A program made the position numbers and the translations under genes. 41,919 bases of DNA from a virus. A model generated the notes under the pieces. The model saw only the letters and a list, made by a program, of their open reading frames with translations, was not told the origin of the DNA and did no database searches. Every line of letters begins with the position of its first letter. Within the stretch, counting starts at the first letter, position 1. The stretch lies in the IMG/VR virus record IMGVR_UViG_3300017917_002418, positions 1 through 41,919 of that record. The stretch is one strand, 5' to 3'. Of the stretch, positions 1-23,357 are shown in pieces.

Positions 1-1095
1 AGAAGCGATCAACATATCTAAGATCTCAAGATCAATCTCTAAAGAGATGTACTCAGACATTACAGCTGTTAATTCAGCTTCAGCATCCAATGAATGGTAA
101 GCATTCAAGTCTTGAGCGAATTCAGGAGTCCATTGAGATTTCAACTTCTTAGTTTTAGCTACGATAGCTTCAGATCTCATTTGAACGTTGATTTGAGGAA
201 TTACAATGCTAGTAGCAGATTCTCCGTTAGGAGTAGAATAAGAAGCACCAGCTTCAAAGTCACCTCTTGCATTGTCTTTAGTTACTTTGTTGTATTCTAC
301 CAAATAAGTGAAAGCACCTGCGAAAGAAGCTAACGCTTTGTTGATGAAGAATACTACAGAAGTACCACCGGTTGAACCAGAAACGTAAGTGAATTGTTGT
401 AACACATCACTGAAAAGTACAGTTGAACCAGAAGTTAAAAGGAATCCTCTTACTCCTAATAAATCTACATCAGCAGAGATAGAAGAAGTTGGAACAGCAA
501 CACGAGTGATAGTTTTAGCAGCAGCAGAAGCTGAGTAATCACTGTCGAAGTTCAATTCAGACCAAGCAGCAGAAGCTGATGAAAATGCAGCAACTGAAGA
601 AGATACTGAAGAAGAGAATTGGTTAGTAGAGTAAGTGAAACGACCAGCTCCGTATAAAGCACCAGTTGAGGTGTTACCGAAGTTAGCAGAAGAGTTACCA
701 TACATTGAGCTATCTCCAGGGAAAGGATTCTTATCAGTTCCGTATTGGAAATCTAAGAAGAATACAAGACCTGAAGGTAAATTCATTGGCTGAACGCTAA
801 CGAATTCTTTAGCAGCGATCTGTCCGAATACCTTTCTTACTAAAGGTAAAGCGATACCAGCCCATTGCTCACCAGTACCAGTTGTGAAGCTAGCACCAGT
901 TCCAGTTTGTGATTGCTCAACAACCAATTGTTTTGCTTGGTTCTCAAGAATCATTGACATATTATTCTTTTCAGTCTCACTACCCATACCTTCTAAAAGG
1001 CCTGTAGCACCCCATTTTTTTGCCAATCTAGCAGCGTCAGATTGCAAAGACTGCCATGGGTTAGCAGATTCTAATAATGATTGTACGTTTGACAT
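1..1095 (-). CDS. 23: Major capsid protein gp23 (3' end outside window)
   Basis: This is the T4-type major head protein that forms the hexamers of the capsid shell. The first 365 codons are visible and the gene runs off the left edge. Residues near the visible end read LKAQWTPEFAQDLNAYHSLD, followed by AEAELT and LEIDLEILDML, a conserved gp23 signature. An N-terminal stretch of about 60 residues includes ENQAKQLVVE. In T4, gp23 is cut by the prohead protease after a hydrophobic-x-Glu near residue 65, so Glu60 is the likely cleavage point here (inference). The start is the ATG at 1095, 25 nt after the scaffold gene stops. No Shine-Dalgarno or CTATTTATA motif lies in that gap, so it is probably co-transcribed with the scaffold gene. 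Confidence 0.97.
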   Translation of the reverse strand, partial: MSNVQSLLESANPWQSLQSDAARLAKKWGATGLLEGMGSETEKNNMSMILENQAKQLVVEQSQTGTGASFTTGTGEQWAGIALPLVRKVFGQIAAKEFVSVQPMNLPSGLVFFLDFQYGTDKNPFPGDSSMYGNSSANFGNTSTGALYGAGRFTYSTNQFSSSVSSSVAAFSSASAAWSELNFDSDYSASAAAKTITRVAVPTSSISADVDLLGVRGFLLTSGSTVLFSDVLQQFTYVSGSTGGTSVVFFINKALASFAGAFTYLVEYNKVTKDNARGDFEAGASYSTPNGESATSIVIPQINVQMRSEAIVAKTKKLKSQWTPEFAQDLNAYHSLDAEAELTAVMSEYISLEIDLEILDMLIAS

Positions 1096-2226: not shown

Positions 2227-2952
2227 TTAGAGTATCTTATCTAGTTTATTTCTATTTCCTTTATAATTTTTATACCCGTACTGTTCTGCAATCTTACCGG
2301 TTATAAAAAGTGGCTGTAAGTTTTTATAGTTAAAGCATTCCTTTTGTTCTTCTACATCCTCTAAGTTATACGAAGCACAGGGTCTTATATGATCAATCTC
2401 CCATACTTTGCCATGATTGCTCCAATTCATTTCCGGTAAAAACTGTTTTTCCAAATGTTCGACCGCTTGCTCTATTGTACAGCCAAGAAGTGTTATTGCT
2501 GAATGTTTTTTATTTACATTTCCTCCGGAAGTGTGTCTCTTTATTGCATCTAGTAGTCTTAACCTCAGTAGGTATTTTACCTTGTGGTTAGGATCGTTCT
2601 CTTTTCTACTTTTACTATATGCGTTTTCCCATTCTTTACCAGTTAGCTGCCTCCATTTATCATGAGCTATTGCAGTACAGACTTTACATCTTGCTGCTAA
2701 TCCATACTTACCTGCTTTTAATTTACTATACTCTGCAAATGTTTTGACTTCTTTGCAAGTTGTGCAGGTCTTGTATCCCGGTAAATCTGGTGTTTTTAAA
2801 CGGGTTGGTGACTTTTTACTATAGTAATGCTTATCATGATTTACTTTACAGCAAACCTTACATTCTCTTTGTAAACCGTCTTTTCTAAGTTTATTTCTGC
2901 TAAACTTTTCAACAGATTTTGTTTCTTTGCAGGTTGGGCATGTCTTTTCCAT
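2227..2952 (-). CDS. HNH endonuclease with two zinc-ribbon modules
   Basis: This is a probable free-standing homing endonuclease. Two similar N-terminal modules each carry two CxxC knuckles (Cys5/8 with Cys31/34, and Cys63/66 with Cys89/92), suggesting tandem zinc-binding DNA-recognition units. The C-terminal half carries an HNH/ββα-metal core: WEIDHIRPC at about residues 184-192 with the Asp187-His188 pair, and NLQPLF at 211-216 supplying the distal Asn. It sits between protease gene 21 and scaffold gene 22, which are adjacent in T4. It has a CTATTTATA motif 4 nt before its ATG and a terminator after it, so it looks like a self-contained insert. The HNH call is firm. Homing is inferred from location. 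Confidence 0.9.
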   Translation of the reverse strand: MEKTCPTCKETKSVEKFSRNKLRKDGLQRECKVCCKVNHDKHYYSKKSPTRLKTPDLPGYKTCTTCKEVKTFAEYSKLKAGKYGLAARCKVCTAIAHDKWRQLTGKEWENAYSKSRKENDPNHKVKYLLRLRLLDAIKRHTSGGNVNKKHSAITLLGCTIEQAVEHLEKQFLPEMNWSNHGKVWEIDHIRPCASYNLEDVEEQKECFNYKNLQPLFITGKIAEQYGYKNYKGNRNKLDKIL

Positions 2953-6080: not shown

Positions 6081-7970
6081 TTATTCCCTAATTTGTCTTT
6101 CATCTAATAAACTAGATGCTTTCTTTTCTGCTTCAAAAATCATCTTCTTCTTTGCTGGTATTTCTTCCAACACTCTGGTGTATTTAGAGAATTCTCTTCT
6201 GGTTGCTTCTAAGGCATAAGGTGAAGTTTTATCTCTTCCATATCCTTGCTGGTCATCAACTTTGTTAGCTTTTCTACCAAGTCTATCTTGTCCTAGAGGA
6301 TCATCTGTACCGTTAATGAACGATGCTTTTTCTTTAGGACGTCCCATTTCAGGTTCATCTTCATTGTATCCATCAGGTACGTTACCGGGTCTAGTGTAGA
6401 CTCTACCCTTACCATAAGCTGTTGCAATGTCATGAGGAGTACCGTAAGTCTCTCCAGATTCTAAAGGATCATTTCCTTCATTTTCAATCTGAGATAATCT
6501 GAATTTACGTTTAGCATCTTCTCTAACTAAGTCTCTCATTTCTTCATATTCATCTTGACTTAAGTGGAAGATGTTGTCGTAAATCCAATCTGAAGAAATC
6601 AATTGAGATTCCATCATCTGGGTAGCGAGATCCATTTTTTCTTTTAGTAATGCTACTCTTTCTTGATCATAGATAATAGAAGGAGTTGTTAGAGATAATT
6701 CAAAGTTAGTTAATGCTTCATCTCTATATCCTTGAATGTACAAATGAACAAATGCAATCTTGTACAGTTCAGAAACTATAATTCTCTGTATTTTTTCAAT
6801 GGTTCTACCAAAGCGAATATCTTCTGCAGCCAATGTAGCTTTTCCTTGTAATTTTTCATCATAACCAAGGAATGCTTTAGGTATTCTTAAGGCAGCAAAT
6901 AACTTATCTCTTAAATAATTAACGTCTGTAATACCGTCATACTGTAATCCGCCTAAGGTTTCAATCTTAGTTGATGTATCGTTTCCTCTCATAGGGATAT
7001 AAAAATCCTCCATAAGGTTCTGCATGTTGTATTTAAGGTTATACTCACCTGTTTGCTGGTCGATGTAAGGAGTTCTCTTCATTTTAGAGATTGCCTTCTG
7101 CATAAATCCTTCTACTTCATTTGGAGGAATACCACCAACGTTCATATAGAAAATACGCTTCTCAGGAGCTCTTACAATTCTATGAACTAACATTGCATCT
7201 TCCATTAAAGTATACTGCTTAAATAATTTTCTAGCAGGTTCAATGTAAGAACGGCCATAAGGTAAGAAGTTTACATCTGTTAAAAGACGGAAATGAGCTA
7301 TTTCGTAGTTATCAAAATAGATAGATTTGCCATCATGCTGATTAGGAGTCTTAAAGTATCCATAAGTATCAGCGGCTAGACCGTCTGGGTCATAACGGAA
7401 TCTAACAGCAGTTGGATTTTCTGGGTCATAATGTTCTTGTCTTTCTATGTTAAATGCTGCAAAAGGAATTACATTGTATACGCCAAACTTCTCTGAAGCT
7501 TCTAGTTTCAAGAAAAAGTCGCCGTATTTACACATATTCCTAATCCACCAACTTAAATTAAACTCAACGTTTAGTACATCGTAAAATAAGTTATAAAGGA
7601 TTTTTTGCACATTCTCATCATTTGATCTAATATGCAATACTTCTCCCATATCATTCTTCAAAGTAGATTCTTCTGAAAGAATATCTAAGGCTGAAGCGAT
7701 GATTGCATCAGTATCCATAGCATCGTATTCAGAGTAAAGCTGGGTTCTTAAAGTCTGATAATTAAAAGATGACTGATAGCCGTATAGAGATGTTGGAGAT
7801 GTTGTGTAAATTCTATTATACCTTGCAACCAGAGAGTTATTCTCTAGCTCTCCAGACATCTGAATTTGATTTGTGTCGGCGACTTTAAGTTGATCACCCC
7901 CAACATTCCTTATAATTACGTCTGTTGAGAATAGTCTACGTAGTCTCGAAAATACACTAGTGTCTGCCAT
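6081..7970 (-). CDS. 20: Portal vertex protein gp20
   Basis: This is the dodecameric portal at the unique head vertex, through which DNA is packaged and where the neck attaches. The 629-residue length is somewhat above T4 gp20 (about 524). Family signatures are clear: DAMDTDAIIASALDILSEES near residues 83-102, WWIRNMCKYGDFFLKLE, PERKIF-like APEKRIFYMNVGG, and the crown/stem segment DKLFAALRIPKAFLGYDEK then KATLAAEDIRFGRTIEKIQR. The C-terminal 130 residues are polar and Gly/Asp-rich and look like an extension. It lies 28 nt after the terminase gene with a CTATTTATA motif 19 nt before the ATG. Confidence 0.96.
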   Translation of the reverse strand: MADTSVFSRLRRLFSTDVIIRNVGGDQLKVADTNQIQMSGELENNSLVARYNRIYTTSPTSLYGYQSSFNYQTLRTQLYSEYDAMDTDAIIASALDILSEESTLKNDMGEVLHIRSNDENVQKILYNLFYDVLNVEFNLSWWIRNMCKYGDFFLKLEASEKFGVYNVIPFAAFNIERQEHYDPENPTAVRFRYDPDGLAADTYGYFKTPNQHDGKSIYFDNYEIAHFRLLTDVNFLPYGRSYIEPARKLFKQYTLMEDAMLVHRIVRAPEKRIFYMNVGGIPPNEVEGFMQKAISKMKRTPYIDQQTGEYNLKYNMQNLMEDFYIPMRGNDTSTKIETLGGLQYDGITDVNYLRDKLFAALRIPKAFLGYDEKLQGKATLAAEDIRFGRTIEKIQRIIVSELYKIAFVHLYIQGYRDEALTNFELSLTTPSIIYDQERVALLKEKMDLATQMMESQLISSDWIYDNIFHLSQDEYEEMRDLVREDAKRKFRLSQIENEGNDPLESGETYGTPHDIATAYGKGRVYTRPGNVPDGYNEDEPEMGRPKEKASFINGTDDPLGQDRLGRKANKVDDQQGYGRDKTSPYALEATRREFSKYTRVLEEIPAKKKMIFEAEKKASSLLDERQIRE

Positions 7971-7989
7971 TACTATTAATTAATATAAG

Positions 7990-7998
7990 TATAAATAG
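7990..7998 (-). promoter_or_regulatory. CTATTTATA motif before the portal gene
   Basis: Exact motif directly abutting the terminase stop codon (TAA followed at once by CTATTTATA), 19 nt before the portal ATG. Confidence 0.5.
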
Positions 7999-9573
7999 TT
8001 AATAAATCCAGCTTATATCTTCTTTTCCTCCTTTTCCATTGTCTATTTCATAAGGATTTACTACATTAGACGGTAGGTAAGCTGCTTGATAAGTTGGTTT
8101 TGATGTTGTAATATTGTTTAAAATATTGCGAGTAAGGTCCATTCCCTGCTGTCGGAATTTTAAAGCAGTATCTCTAATGTACATTCCTATACCAAAAGAC
8201 ATTACCAGGTCATCATTATAACCGTGCTGGGCTTCTGCTCGGCCATTCTTCCATACAAACACTTTCATCTCTTCAATTAAACGCCTGGATTGAATGGTTA
8301 CTGCTTTCTCATTAACATACTCTTGGAATTTACCTACTATAATAGGCCTAGTTCTTTGGTTTGTTGAGAAACCAGCTACAAGACTTGAGTTTGGATCGTA
8401 TTGATCGAAGTAAGTTTCGGCTGTTATGTTACCGTTTCTAGGTGAATAGTAAAGATTAGCATAACCTCTATCAATAATAGTCTGGATTGTTGACCAACCT
8501 ACAGATGCATTCTCAACTACAAGTAAAGCATCATTATATTCACTAGCAATTCCGACAAGTAAATGTCCGAACTCCTTAGTTCCTAGCTGTCCTCTATATT
8601 CCCCTACTTGAACATTGTTCTCAATATCAATAATATGGAAGGCAGAATAGTCTTTTCCATCACCTCTTGCTACGTCGGCTACTACCATATAAGATCTTGA
8701 ATAGTCTGCCGGTTCCCAGATCCATAAATTCTGGTCAGCACCACGTCTTTCCATTGGTTCTTTAACGTAGGTCTGTTGATAGAACTCTAAATACTCACCG
8801 TAAAAGACTGTATCCCCTGAAGTACTAAAATCACAATCACACTCCTGTGCTGCAAGTCTTGGATCTCCAAGTAATTCATCTTGTCTTCTTCTCCAATCAT
8901 CGTTTCTCTCCGGGTGAACGTACCAAGGTAATTTAATTGGTAGGAAATCATTCTCTCCAGATTCAGCTCTTACCCAGGTTTGGTGAAACCAGTTACCGGT
9001 ACCGTACGGAGTTGATAAAACTATCGCTCCTCCTCCGGTTGCCAGGGTTTGCTGAGCTGATGCCCAGGTTTCTGCAATGTTATCAATGAAGGCTGCCTCG
9101 TCAATTAACAGCAGTGATACAGCTTCTGAACGTGCAGAGTCTGAATTTGATGATTTAGCTTGTATTTTAGATCCGTTTGATAGTCTTAAAGACAGTTTAT
9201 TGTGCTCAACTGCCGGTACTGTTAACCAGGATGGTAGGTTTTCGTACATAAACTGCACTTTTGATACAAGATTTCGTGCAGTTGCCTGTGTTGTTGCAAG
9301 GGTTAGTACGTTTTTATCCTTGTGAAAAAGCATTAACCATAGTGCATATCCTGCCCCTAAAGTGGAAATACCTAACTGTCTTGACTTTAAAACAATAGAA
9401 TACGGGTGATCTTGGAAGTGTTTTAATACTTTTTCCTGAAAAGGGTATAGGTGAAATAAGATTCTACCTCTTTGAGGATGCTGAATGTAGCAGTATTTTT
9501 TCATAAAATGTACCGGATCAACGACACATTTAACGTACTCCTGCCTGATTATCTGTTTTAAATCTTCACTCAT
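7999..9573 (-). CDS. 17: Terminase large subunit gp17
   Basis: This is the packaging ATPase and headful nuclease. The ATPase domain has a Walker A-like LKSRQLGIST (residues 62-71), a Walker B LLLIDEAAF (154-162) and a coupling motif LSTPYGTGN (187-194). The RNase H-like nuclease domain begins at MVVADVARGDGKDY with Asp300. It continues through LLVVENASVGW with Glu353 and ends with a C-terminal NDDLVMSFG carrying a further acidic residue. The 524-residue length is a little shorter than T4 gp17 (610). The start ATG at 9573 lies 2 nt after the upstream stop. In T4, genes 18 and 19 separate 17 from 20. Here 20 follows directly. Confidence 0.97.
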   Translation of the reverse strand: MSEDLKQIIRQEYVKCVVDPVHFMKKYCYIQHPQRGRILFHLYPFQEKVLKHFQDHPYSIVLKSRQLGISTLGAGYALWLMLFHKDKNVLTLATTQATARNLVSKVQFMYENLPSWLTVPAVEHNKLSLRLSNGSKIQAKSSNSDSARSEAVSLLLIDEAAFIDNIAETWASAQQTLATGGGAIVLSTPYGTGNWFHQTWVRAESGENDFLPIKLPWYVHPERNDDWRRRQDELLGDPRLAAQECDCDFSTSGDTVFYGEYLEFYQQTYVKEPMERRGADQNLWIWEPADYSRSYMVVADVARGDGKDYSAFHIIDIENNVQVGEYRGQLGTKEFGHLLVGIASEYNDALLVVENASVGWSTIQTIIDRGYANLYYSPRNGNITAETYFDQYDPNSSLVAGFSTNQRTRPIIVGKFQEYVNEKAVTIQSRRLIEEMKVFVWKNGRAEAQHGYNDDLVMSFGIGMYIRDTALKFRQQGMDLTRNILNNITTSKPTYQAAYLPSNVVNPYEIDNGKGGKEDISWIY

Positions 9574-9575
9574 AA

Positions 9576-9974
9576 TTAATAAAGAATTCCCATAATAAGA
9601 ATAATACTAGATACTCCGTATGCAATATACTTCTGTAATCTCTGTGCAAGGTATGCAGCTTTGTATTCTTCTATGATAGAATCTTTATTAGTGATGATTT
9701 TTTTGTAATTATCTTCATTCTTTACATAAACTTGAATTGTGCTATCCTTGTATGAGAGCATGGTATCTTTGTGTTGAATAACTTGTCCTAAGACTGTGAT
9801 TGAATCTCTTGCAAAACCTAGCTGCTTGCCGCAGTAAGTTCTTTCTTCTTTAATGATTAATGCCTTTCTTAATGTACTACAAGGCACACAGCATGTATCA
9901 GTCGAAACTTTCTGTGAATAGAGCGGTGATGTCATTATTAGACATAGCACCAATACGCTTAATATCTTCTTCAT
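9576..9974 (-). CDS. Exported coiled-coil protein with C-terminal membrane anchor
   Basis: This 132-residue protein has a clear signal peptide ending PLYSQ; the final Ser-Gln is typical of Bacteroidota signal sequences. A Cys-rich start (Cys28, Cys29, Cys32), a charged coiled-coil region at about residues 45-112, and a C-terminal hydrophobic helix (YGVSSIILIMGILY) follow. The start lies inside the preceding gene in another frame, with a 77-nt overlap. Such an overlap between two coiled-coil envelope proteins just before the terminase gene resembles a spanin pair. There is no lipobox, and the C-terminal anchor is not classical for an o-spanin. The exported nature is well supported. The lysis role is speculative. 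Confidence 0.78.
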   Translation of the reverse strand: MKKILSVLVLCLIMTSPLYSQKVSTDTCCVPCSTLRKALIIKEERTYCGKQLGFARDSITVLGQVIQHKDTMLSYKDSTIQVYVKNEDNYKKIITNKDSIIEEYKAAYLAQRLQKYIAYGVSSIILIMGILY

Positions 9975-12253: not shown

Positions 12254-12808
12254 TTATCCTTGTTCAAAATATTCGTTCTCAAAATAAAGAACCTCAAAAG
12301 GATTCGAAACATTAACCAACTGAGCAGCATTCAGTAAATCTGAATACTCAGCTACTGATTCGGTTTGTATTTTTCTTAAATCTTGTAAAAAATCAAAAGT
12401 CGATAAGCACATAGAGAATATTGTCTGTGAATTTGAATTATAAGACATTAATAATCCAAGTTCCATATCGTATGCTTTATTGATGATATCTATAAGGTTT
12501 GCAAAATTTGGAATAGATTTGATCGGTGCAATAACAGGAAGTACATTCCAATCCACTAAGTATTTCTGAAGTTTTTCTGCATGTGTTAATTCGCTTGCAG
12601 CCTCTGCTTCAAAGTAAGCAGCAGCATTATTATAAGCTTTATCTTTACACCAGTTAGCAGCATTTCTATAAAAATAATGGGCAGTGTACTCATCTTTTAG
12701 TCTTTCCATCAGTAACATTACTACTTGAGGTTCTAAAGTAACAGGAAGTCTTACGTCTGTTTGAGCTGCAGCCTGTATTTCGTTTAGTGATTTTAATTTT
12801 GTTTTCAT
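12254..12808 (-). CDS. Ferritin-like iron-binding protein
   Basis: This is a four-helix ferritin. The ferroxidase ligands are visible: Glu40 in LKDEYTAHYFY (helix A), Glu73 and His76 in ASELTHAEKLQKYL (helix B), Glu116 in DMELGLLMSYN (helix C), and Gln148/Glu150 in FLQDLRKIQTES (helix D). The run AANWCKDKAYNNAAAYF aligns well with bacterial FtnA. The 184-residue length includes a 20-residue N-terminal extension absent from FtnA. It would oxidise Fe(II) and store or detoxify iron. Whether it acts in the cell or in the virion is unknown. A CTATTTATA motif lies 10 nt before the ATG, and the gene sits among unknown accessory genes. Confidence 0.9.
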   Translation of the reverse strand: MKTKLKSLNEIQAAAQTDVRLPVTLEPQVVMLLMERLKDEYTAHYFYRNAANWCKDKAYNNAAAYFEAEAASELTHAEKLQKYLVDWNVLPVIAPIKSIPNFANLIDIINKAYDMELGLLMSYNSNSQTIFSMCLSTFDFLQDLRKIQTESVAEYSDLLNAAQLVNVSNPFEVLYFENEYFEQG

Positions 12809-12818
12809 GAGATGTTAT

Positions 12819-12827
12819 TATAAATAG
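12819..12827 (-). promoter_or_regulatory. CTATTTATA motif before the ferritin gene
   Basis: Exact motif, 1 nt after the preceding stop codon and 10 nt before the ferritin ATG. Confidence 0.5.
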
Positions 12828-12828
12828 C

Positions 12829-13443
12829 TTACCAGTATCCTGAGTAAGTTCCTTTTAAGCCTAGTAGTTTAGCGTATCTTGGAAGACGGCAAGCCCAGTA
12901 TCCTGCCTTAGTTTTGTCTTTTTTGTCTTTGCAGTTGTGACGTTCAGCAAAAGCTTTACGTGCTTTTGGGTTATTGATTTTAGCTTTTAATCCTGTGGTG
13001 TCTCCAAAAGATACTTTTTTAATATTCTTAGTTTTTGGGTCTCTTACATATACGTAAAATTTCTTAGAGCCTCCACGGTGTGGTTTGTTTAACTGTACGT
13101 TCTCACCTTTGTGCTTAACTTCCTCTAAGGTATTTTCTTCTAGCATTGGTAAATCTAAAGGTACTAAGTCACCTTCAAATAAAGCATATTCTCCTAAGTT
13201 AGTCTCTAGTAGAATTTCTTTATCCTCTGGTCCAACATCAAGAATATTTCTTGCATATAAAGTTCTAGCTTCTTTCCATAAGTTTAAAAAAGCAGGAGAA
13301 CCATACCGGAAAGTATTCTCAGTCAACGGCTTCTTGTTTTTAATATGGTACAAAAGGTTTTCTGATAGAGGCTGTTGGAAGGTTATTCCTTCAGTGATGA
13401 TTGGAGCTTTTCCTCCACAGGTGTTACATCCACAACTACACAT
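12829..13443 (-). CDS. Unknown Cys-leader protein with conserved C-terminal phage domain
   Basis: This 204-residue protein starts with a Cys cluster (MCSCGCNTCGG) that could bind metal. A middle acidic region (about residues 60-110) leads to a C-terminal domain with KFYVYVRDPKTKNIKKVSFG, then ARKAFAERHNC, then KAGYWACRLPRYAKLLG. The C-terminal domain looks like one common in large-phage proteins, but its function is unknown to me. It contains PIITEG near the N-terminus, a possible gp21 cleavage site. A CTATTTATA motif ends 4 nt before the ATG. Confidence 0.8.
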   Translation of the reverse strand: MCSCGCNTCGGKAPIITEGITFQQPLSENLLYHIKNKKPLTENTFRYGSPAFLNLWKEARTLYARNILDVGPEDKEILLETNLGEYALFEGDLVPLDLPMLEENTLEEVKHKGENVQLNKPHRGGSKKFYVYVRDPKTKNIKKVSFGDTTGLKAKINNPKARKAFAERHNCKDKKDKTKAGYWACRLPRYAKLLGLKGTYSGYW

Positions 13444-22922: not shown

Positions 22923-23357
22923 CTAACCGGGAAGGTGCAAGTCTTTTCTAAAGTATTTTCCTGTTATATTATCATTATAAGAATTAGAAGTAAGTACTTC
23001 ATGTTTACATTGATATTCTATCTCATAATATGTGAGTTCTTTCTTAGATTTGCAAAGTTTAAGAATTTTTCTTTCGAAGTTTTCTACTCCATGGACTTTG
23101 ATATCTGCTAGAAGTTCTTTATTAGAACCCCAGTACATCATCCAATTTGATTCTTTAGTAATTATTTTATGAGTAGGTTTTCTTCCAGGTCCGGTCTGTT
23201 CTGAGATTTCTTTTTTAGTTAATTTGGTTTTTGTATTATTCCAAAATACTTTTTTACCTATGTAAAATTTTCCTGTAAGTTTGTTTTTTATTATGTATAC
23301 AAACCCAAACCAATCCTCCGGAGAGAATGGGTCAATATAAATCCATTTCTGGGTCAT
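22923..23357 (-). CDS. GIY-YIG-like nuclease
   Basis: This 144-residue protein has the GIY-YIG pattern: GFVYIIKNKLTGKFYIGKK (about residues 18-36) with the Tyr and YIG signatures. A WMMYWGSNKELLADI segment (about 72-86) and NFERKILKLCKSKKELTYYE (about 93-112) with a candidate catalytic Glu follow. No DNA-binding domain is fused, so it is a minimal form. Its ATG overlaps the stop of the upstream tail gene as TAATG, so it is translated with the tail operon and lacks its own promoter-like motif. A homing endonuclease or a repair/recombination nuclease are both possible. Confidence 0.82.
   Translation of the reverse strand: MTQKWIYIDPFSPEDWFGFVYIIKNKLTGKFYIGKKVFWNNTKTKLTKKEISEQTGPGRKPTHKIITKESNWMMYWGSNKELLADIKVHGVENFERKILKLCKSKKELTYYEIEYQCKHEVLTSNSYNDNITGKYFRKDLHLPG

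What the first reader, a model, noticed from the sequence alone, without database searches (positions are those of the whole stretch)
12254..12808. Phage-encoded ferritin with complete ferroxidase site
Glu40, Glu73, His76, Glu116 and Gln148/Glu150 fit the FtnA centre, so it is probably active. Ferritin genes in phages are uncommon and bear on iron control during infection, or on iron carried in virions. It has its own promoter-like motif and sits among unknown accessory genes rather than with metabolic genes.
Basis: partly seen in the sequence, partly recalled or inferred. Interest (0 to 1): 0.6.

Follow-up and report, generated by a model that had tools for sequence, protein, structure and literature searches.

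The report
Phage-only ferritin with altered iron centre
A virus that probably infects Bacteroidota bacteria carries its own iron-storage protein (ferritin), one of a large, purely viral branch of ferritins that keeps the iron-oxidising site but has rebuilt its surroundings, so these viruses may control their host's iron during infection.

Summary
The ORF at 12254-12808 lies on the minus strand and encodes a 184-aa ferritin: Pfam Ferritin E=6.5e-17; AlphaFold pLDDT 94; top fold matches are bacterial non-heme ferritins. The di-iron ligands Glu40, Glu73, His76, Glu116 and Gln148, plus Tyr47, are present. Two corrections: Glu150 is not conserved, and the site is not the complete E. coli FtnA centre. 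Sites A and B are intact, but third site C (Glu49/Glu126/Glu130) is gone and FtnA His46 is replaced by Glu69.

The gene is not a one-off. At least 133 IMG/VR contigs carry it. All 83 distinct phage proteins examined form one fully supported branch apart from 13 cellular-type ferritins (at most 33% identity), and all have Glu or Asp at FtnA position 46. No relative was found in 50,697 catalogued phage records; the two hits among 84,980 species genomes are stray phage contigs. dN/dS is 0.04-0.13.

Genomic context varies, often with a TATTTATA promoter-like element. Best reading: a late-expressed ferroxidase cage that sequesters Fe2+ in the infected cell. Virion iron cargo and ribonucleotide reductase supply are less supported. 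Activity, 24-mer assembly and timing are inferred, not shown.

The parts
12254..12808 (-). ferritin gene, 184 aa, stop codon included
12819..12826 (-). TATTTATA promoter-like element, begins 18 nt before the ATG
   Evidence: 13 of 50 genes in the window have TATTTAT within 30 nt of the start, 4 copies elsewhere on that strand; also before the ferritin in about half of the relatives examined
12689..12691 (-). codon of Glu40 (= FtnA Glu17, site A)
   Evidence: 83/83 in the family
12602..12604 (-). codon of Glu69 (= FtnA His46; position of diatom PmFTN Glu44)
   Evidence: Glu 82, Asp 1 of 83 phage proteins; Gln or His in 13/13 cellular-type ferritins
12590..12592 (-). codon of Glu73 (= FtnA Glu50, bridging ligand)
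   Evidence: 83/83
12581..12583 (-). codon of His76 (= FtnA His53, site A)
   Evidence: 83/83
12461..12463 (-). codon of Glu116 (= FtnA Glu94, site B)
   Evidence: 83/83
12365..12367 (-). codon of Gln148 (= FtnA Gln127)
   Evidence: 82/83
12356..12358 (-). codon of Ser151 (= FtnA Glu130, the lost B/C ligand)
   Evidence: Ser 70, Ala 10, Glu 3 of 83
12269..12301 (-). C-terminal helix E (residues 170-180)
   Evidence: secondary structure of the AlphaFold model
12737..12808 (-). N-terminal extension, residues 1-24, with a short helix 2-10; length varies in the family and is almost absent in the 162-165 aa members
12829..13443 (-). upstream neighbour of unknown function (phrog_7595 domain); directly upstream of the ferritin in 15 of 70 loci, but also present in phages without ferritin

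Best explanation
The gene encodes a ferroxidase-type ferritin subunit of a phage-specific lineage, carried as a portable stand-alone gene by T4-like (gp23-capsid) myoviruses and their kin; the window's phage probably infects Bacteroidota. Shown: ferritin fold; conserved A/B di-iron ligands with the site B tyrosine; loss of site C; Glu at FtnA position 46; purifying selection; a single viral clade in the sample; shifting gene neighbourhoods. Inferred: subunits form a 24-mer; Fe2+ is oxidised at A/B with about 2 Fe per O2; without Glu130 the Fe3+ is passed quickly to a mineral core. The protein is probably made late, from a TATTTATA element shared with the portal gene and other genes of the window. 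It sequesters the iron set free as the host's metabolism is dismantled, so limiting Fenton damage to phage DNA and buffering iron for phage enzymes until lysis.
For: Fold and family. Ligands: with ligand roles from PMC7762939. Consequence of losing Glu130: the diatom PmFTN E130A variant still oxidises Fe2+ fast and mineralises about ten times faster than wild type (PMC4653698); EcFtnA site C variants keep activity at 2 Fe per O2 (PMC3663513). Selection: dN/dS 0.035-0.13 in 12 pairs. Single clade: support 100/100 against 13 cellular-type ferritins. Family size and viral restriction. Stand-alone portability: neighbours include tail tube, gp23/scaffold, dUTPase, Pol A and endolysin genes. Own promoter-like element.
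Against: No expression, assembly or activity data. The late-promoter reading of TATTTATA is statistical only. PmFTN and EcFtnA are distant analogues, so transfer of their kinetics is uncertain. The benefit (protection of DNA or buffering) is not tested by anything here. FtnA Trp122, present in 10 of 13 cellular-type ferritins, is lost.
Confidence: 0.55

Rival explanations
1. Virion cargo: the ferritin, or a ferritin-loaded iron core, is packaged in or on the particle and delivered to the next host, or protects the particle against oxidants.
For: In some relatives the gene lies between tail tube and baseplate genes (L019, L020, L040) or between prohead protease and scaffold/gp23 genes (L021, L046). 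BFVD holds long phage proteins named prohead protease that match the ferritin fold (ranks 15, 19, 25). The 'Ferrojan horse' idea of iron in phage tails exists in the literature.
Against: No fixed structural neighbour; many relatives have it by dUTPase, polymerase or endolysin genes. No conserved packaging tail was seen: the C-terminus is the ferritin helix E, and the N-terminal extension is of variable length and almost absent in some.
Confidence: 0.13
2. Iron donor for a phage iron enzyme, above all the class I ribonucleotide reductase.
For: 7 of 27 ferritin-bearing records carry a class I RNR small subunit.
Against: Four ferritin-bearing records (G061, G063, G064, G069) carry the B12-dependent class II RNR and no class I subunit was found in them; some may be fragments. 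In L058 the ferritin lies just downstream of a class II RNR and a dUTPase gene.
Confidence: 0.12
3. Anti-host or anti-defence withholding: the ferritin starves host enzymes or iron-dependent defences, or blocks competing phages.
For: Accessory, patchy gene: not found in the related Immutovirus.
Against: Nothing specific; no defence gene was recognised as a neighbour.
Confidence: 0.08
4. Non-catalytic remnant or a ferritin-like protein without ferroxidase function (FtnB-like or scaffold role).
For: Site C, Glu130 and Trp122 are lost.
Against: The A/B ligands are near-invariant over a family that diverges down to 29% identity, dN/dS is low, and a truly degenerate FtnB-type sequence loses these very ligands (L163).
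Confidence: 0.07

Closest known systems
Bacterial non-heme ferritin FtnA (E. coli 1eum, Vibrio 3qz3, Helicobacter/Campylobacter Ftn)
   Same: Four-helix bundle plus helix E, Foldseek TM (target) 0.86-0.92; ligands E17, E50, H53, E94, Q127 and Tyr24
   Different: Site C (E49, E126, E130) lost, His46 to Glu, Trp122 lost; 22-28% identity in the fold alignments; far below the NCBIfam FtnA equivalog cut-off (45.5 against 178 bits)
Animal H-chain ferritin (HuHF)
   Same: Two-iron centre with Gln on helix D and no Glu at the position of FtnA 130 (Ala in HuHF)
   Different: HuHF keeps Glu at FtnA 49 and 126 and has Gln, not Glu, at FtnA 46; very distant in sequence
Diatom ferritin PmFTN
   Same: Glu at the FtnA 46 position (PmFTN Glu44), said in 2013 to occur only in diatoms and cyanobacteria (PMC3663513)
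   Different: PmFTN keeps Glu130; the phage proteins mostly have Ser or Ala there
Already recorded viral ferritins: 'Ftn ferritin-like protein' of uncultured Caudovirales (A0A6J5MFB8), ferritin of giant viruses (PMC7136201), bfr of a Bathyarchaeia virus (PMC10904782)
   Same: Virus-encoded ferritin superfamily; A0A6J5MFB8 is 52% identical over 125 columns and is probably a member of this same clade
   Different: Recorded as single annotations or as other ferritin types; no description found of a phage-wide clade or of the changed iron site

Membership tests
Ferritin (24-mer, non-heme Ftn) | Four-helix bundle with a fifth C-terminal helix | tested here: met
   helices 27-56, 60-86, 105-131, 135-162, 170-180, pLDDT 94
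Ferritin (24-mer, non-heme Ftn) | Intra-subunit di-iron ligands E17, E50, H53, E94, Q127 and Tyr24 | tested here: met
   (by alignment; side-chain geometry not measured)
Ferritin (24-mer, non-heme Ftn) | Pfam Ferritin gathering score | tested here: met
   62.2 against 24.5 bits; 53 of 53 members match the family
Ferritin (24-mer, non-heme Ftn) | 24-mer cage and ferroxidase activity | not testable with these tools
   only a single chain was modelled
FtnA equivalog of bacteria | Third iron site C (E49, E126, E129, E130) | tested here: not met
   positions are N/S/A, I/G, variable, S/A in 83 phage proteins
FtnA equivalog of bacteria | NCBIfam PRK10304 cut-off | tested here: not met
   45.5 against 178 bits
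Bacterioferritin | Glu127/His130 on helix D and haem ligand Met52 | tested here: not met
   Gln148, Ser151 and Leu74 at these places
Dps mini-ferritin | No helix E, ferroxidase site between subunits, 12-mer | tested here: not met
   helix E present, intra-subunit ligand set present; oligomer not tested
Rubrerythrin | Rubredoxin Cys4 domain | tested here: not met
   184 aa with only two Cys, far apart, no CxxC; Pfam Rubrerythrin match is weak, 23.3 bits

The most novel reading that the evidence does not exclude
Phages hold their own old ferritin lineage whose iron centre has been rebuilt (Glu130 and site C lost, His46 to Glu) into a fast-mineralising iron trap used late in infection by many uncultured Bacteroidota myoviruses, making host iron a managed resource of the infected cell and releasing mineralised iron at lysis.
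Probability: 0.35. Interest if true: 0.7.

Novelty: new variant of a known kind. Interest (0 to 1): 0.5.

Why it matters
If right, a large set of uncultured phages manages iron with a dedicated ferritin rather than one borrowed recently from a host. It gives a concrete, testable viral link to iron cycling: iron taken out of the labile pool in infected cells and released as ferritin mineral at lysis. It also offers a natural experiment on what site C of ferritins does, since a whole clade has dispensed with it while keeping the di-iron site.

Tried and rejected
Catalogued phage relatives: none with two family queries. An FtnA query found only host-type ferritins in unverified 'phage' records and a chance RecA match. 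Sigma-70 promoter scan: no excess. T4 late promoter TATAAATA in sense orientation: the matches lie on the opposite strand, so the motif was re-read as TATTTATA. Structure in the 110-nt gap downstream of the gene: none beyond shuffles (z -0.6). Upstream neighbour 12829-13443 as a functional partner: rejected, because it occurs in Immutovirus and Methylophilales phages, whose records gave no ferritin match. RNR supply as a general role: weakened by class II RNR carriers. Relatives in the order of the MAG that holds L071: none besides L071 itself. Literature searches for a phage ferritin clade: nothing on point in the held library.

Full report
What was checked. The reported interval is an ORF on the minus strand, 12254-12808, ATG start, 184 aa. 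Pfam Ferritin matches at 62.2 bits, E=6.5e-17; the phage library places it in phrog_16594, function unknown. A profile of the family finds bacterial non-heme ferritins first among solved structures. AlphaFold, from an alignment of 53 members, gives pLDDT 94.1 and the ferritin layout: four long helices and a fifth short C-terminal helix, plus a short N-terminal helix. The best Foldseek matches are the Vibrio and E. coli ferritins, TM (target) 0.90-0.92. The observation therefore stands.

The iron site. Against E. coli FtnA, Glu40=E17, Glu73=E50, His76=H53, Glu116=E94, Gln148=Q127 and Tyr47=Y24, without gaps between helices A and B and with one gap in the loop before helix D. Ligand roles are as given in PMC7762939. 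In 83 distinct phage proteins the residues are invariant, except Gln148, which is Asn in one. The site C set is lost: FtnA Glu49 is mostly Asn, Ser or Ala; Glu126 is mostly Ile or Gly; Glu130 is Ser (70), Ala (10) or Glu (3). FtnA His46 is Glu in 82 and Asp in 1, while 13 cellular-type ferritins have Gln or His. A Glu there was reported in 2013 only from diatoms and cyanobacteria, with Glu130 called conserved in prokaryotic ferritins (PMC3663513). In the diatom protein, Glu130 holds Fe3+ at the centre, and its removal leaves fast oxidation but speeds mineralisation about tenfold (PMC4653698). By analogy, and only by analogy, the phage site is a fast pass-through centre.

A viral family. One query found 69 IMG/VR relatives at 38-88% identity; the alignment-based scan found 133, of which the best 80 were kept. 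No relative was found in 50,697 catalogued phage records. In one genome per species for 84,980 prokaryotes only two loci matched; both are phage fragments, L071 with homologues of the window's tail, primase and exonuclease genes and L072 with a dUTPase gene beside the ferritin. The scan used motifs specific to the phage family, so it shows that hosts lack this family, not that they lack ferritin. A maximum-likelihood tree separates all 83 phage-family rows (two of them from MAG contigs) from 13 cellular-type ferritins with support 100/100 and a long branch. Phage to cellular identity is at most 33%, median 21%; within the phage family the median is 53%. The cellular sample is small, so the sister group is not known. 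dN/dS is 0.035-0.13 in twelve pairs, several with high dS, so the ratio is approximate.

The phage. The window is a 41.9-kb IMG/VR fragment with T4-type terminase, portal, prohead protease and baseplate genes. The terminase is 61.7% identical to that of Flavobacterium phage immuto. The host is therefore probably a Bacteroidota member (inference). Immutovirus has the upstream neighbour, but no ferritin was found there. Many large relatives carry a gp23 capsid gene (11 of 18 with a match over the cut-off).

Neighbourhood and expression. Across 70 loci the ferritin sits in at least six settings: beside the unknown gene 12829-13443 type (15 loci), tail tube/baseplate, prohead/scaffold/gp23, dUTPase with class II RNR, Pol A, and endolysin. 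It is almost always co-directional with its neighbours. The window shows TATTTAT in the 30 nt before 13 of 50 genes and only four times elsewhere on that strand (Fisher p 3e-16 before correction for choice of motif). The portal gene and the ferritin are among them. About half of the relatives have the same motif before their ferritin in unrelated settings. I read it as a late-type promoter element; this is inference.

How it probably works. Late synthesis, assembly into a cage, oxidation of Fe2+ at A/B, quick transfer to a core, so that iron freed during takeover is kept from Fenton chemistry and from waste. Shown: fold, ligands, selection, clade, context. Inferred: cage, kinetics, timing, benefit. 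The rivals, virion cargo and RNR supply, are weaker: no constant structural neighbour or packaging tail was found, and four ferritin-bearing records carry B12-dependent RNR with no class I subunit found. These records may be fragments, which weakens that negative.

Novelty. Viral ferritins are on record: giant viruses (PMC7136201), a Bathyarchaeia virus bfr (PMC10904782), and an uncultured Caudovirales fragment 52% identical to this one. I found no account of the phage clade or of its changed centre in the held literature, which lacks most subscription journals and preprints. Hence a new variant of a known kind.

Noticed in passing
window, upstream of starts at 2952, 4968, 6049, 7970, 12808, 13443, 18213, 21179, 25990, 34650, 37091, 40265, 41065 (minus strand): TATTTAT(A) is strongly concentrated 7-27 nt before start codons, most often exactly 12 nt, which would make near-leaderless transcripts if it is a -10 element. 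TATTTATA is the exact reverse complement of the T4 late promoter motif TATAAATA.
   Followed up: partly
BFVD entries A0A6J7WPK9, A0A6J7WIS1, A0A6J7XDU5: Long uncultured-phage proteins named prohead protease align with the ferritin-like fold, suggesting protease-Dps fusions that could bring a ferritin-like domain into the capsid.
   Followed up: no
window 12829-13443: Neighbour family of unknown function with a conserved C-terminal domain (..ARxxFAxRHxC..DKTKxGYWxCR..); also in Immutovirus, Methylophilales and Pelagibacter phages.
   Followed up: partly
L029, L032-L036, about 7300-9650: A run of small proteins sharing a similar N-terminus (MKxxxLFExFxxE) follows the ferritin in this phage group.
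   Followed up: no
window 2227-2952 and 22923-23357: HNH-like (Cys-motif containing) and GIY-YIG-like endonuclease ORFs among structural and replication genes, possible homing endonucleases; judged by eye only.
   Followed up: no
GenBank OR845001 / OR850087: Unverified 'Staphylococcus phage' records hold a cellular-type ferritin gene, probably host contamination.
   Followed up: partly
L071 and L072 (MAG contigs): Phage contigs binned into bacterial MAGs of the species-genome collection.
   Followed up: yes
L100, residues equivalent to window 147-148: The only family member with Asn in place of Gln148, with Gln one residue earlier.
   Followed up: no
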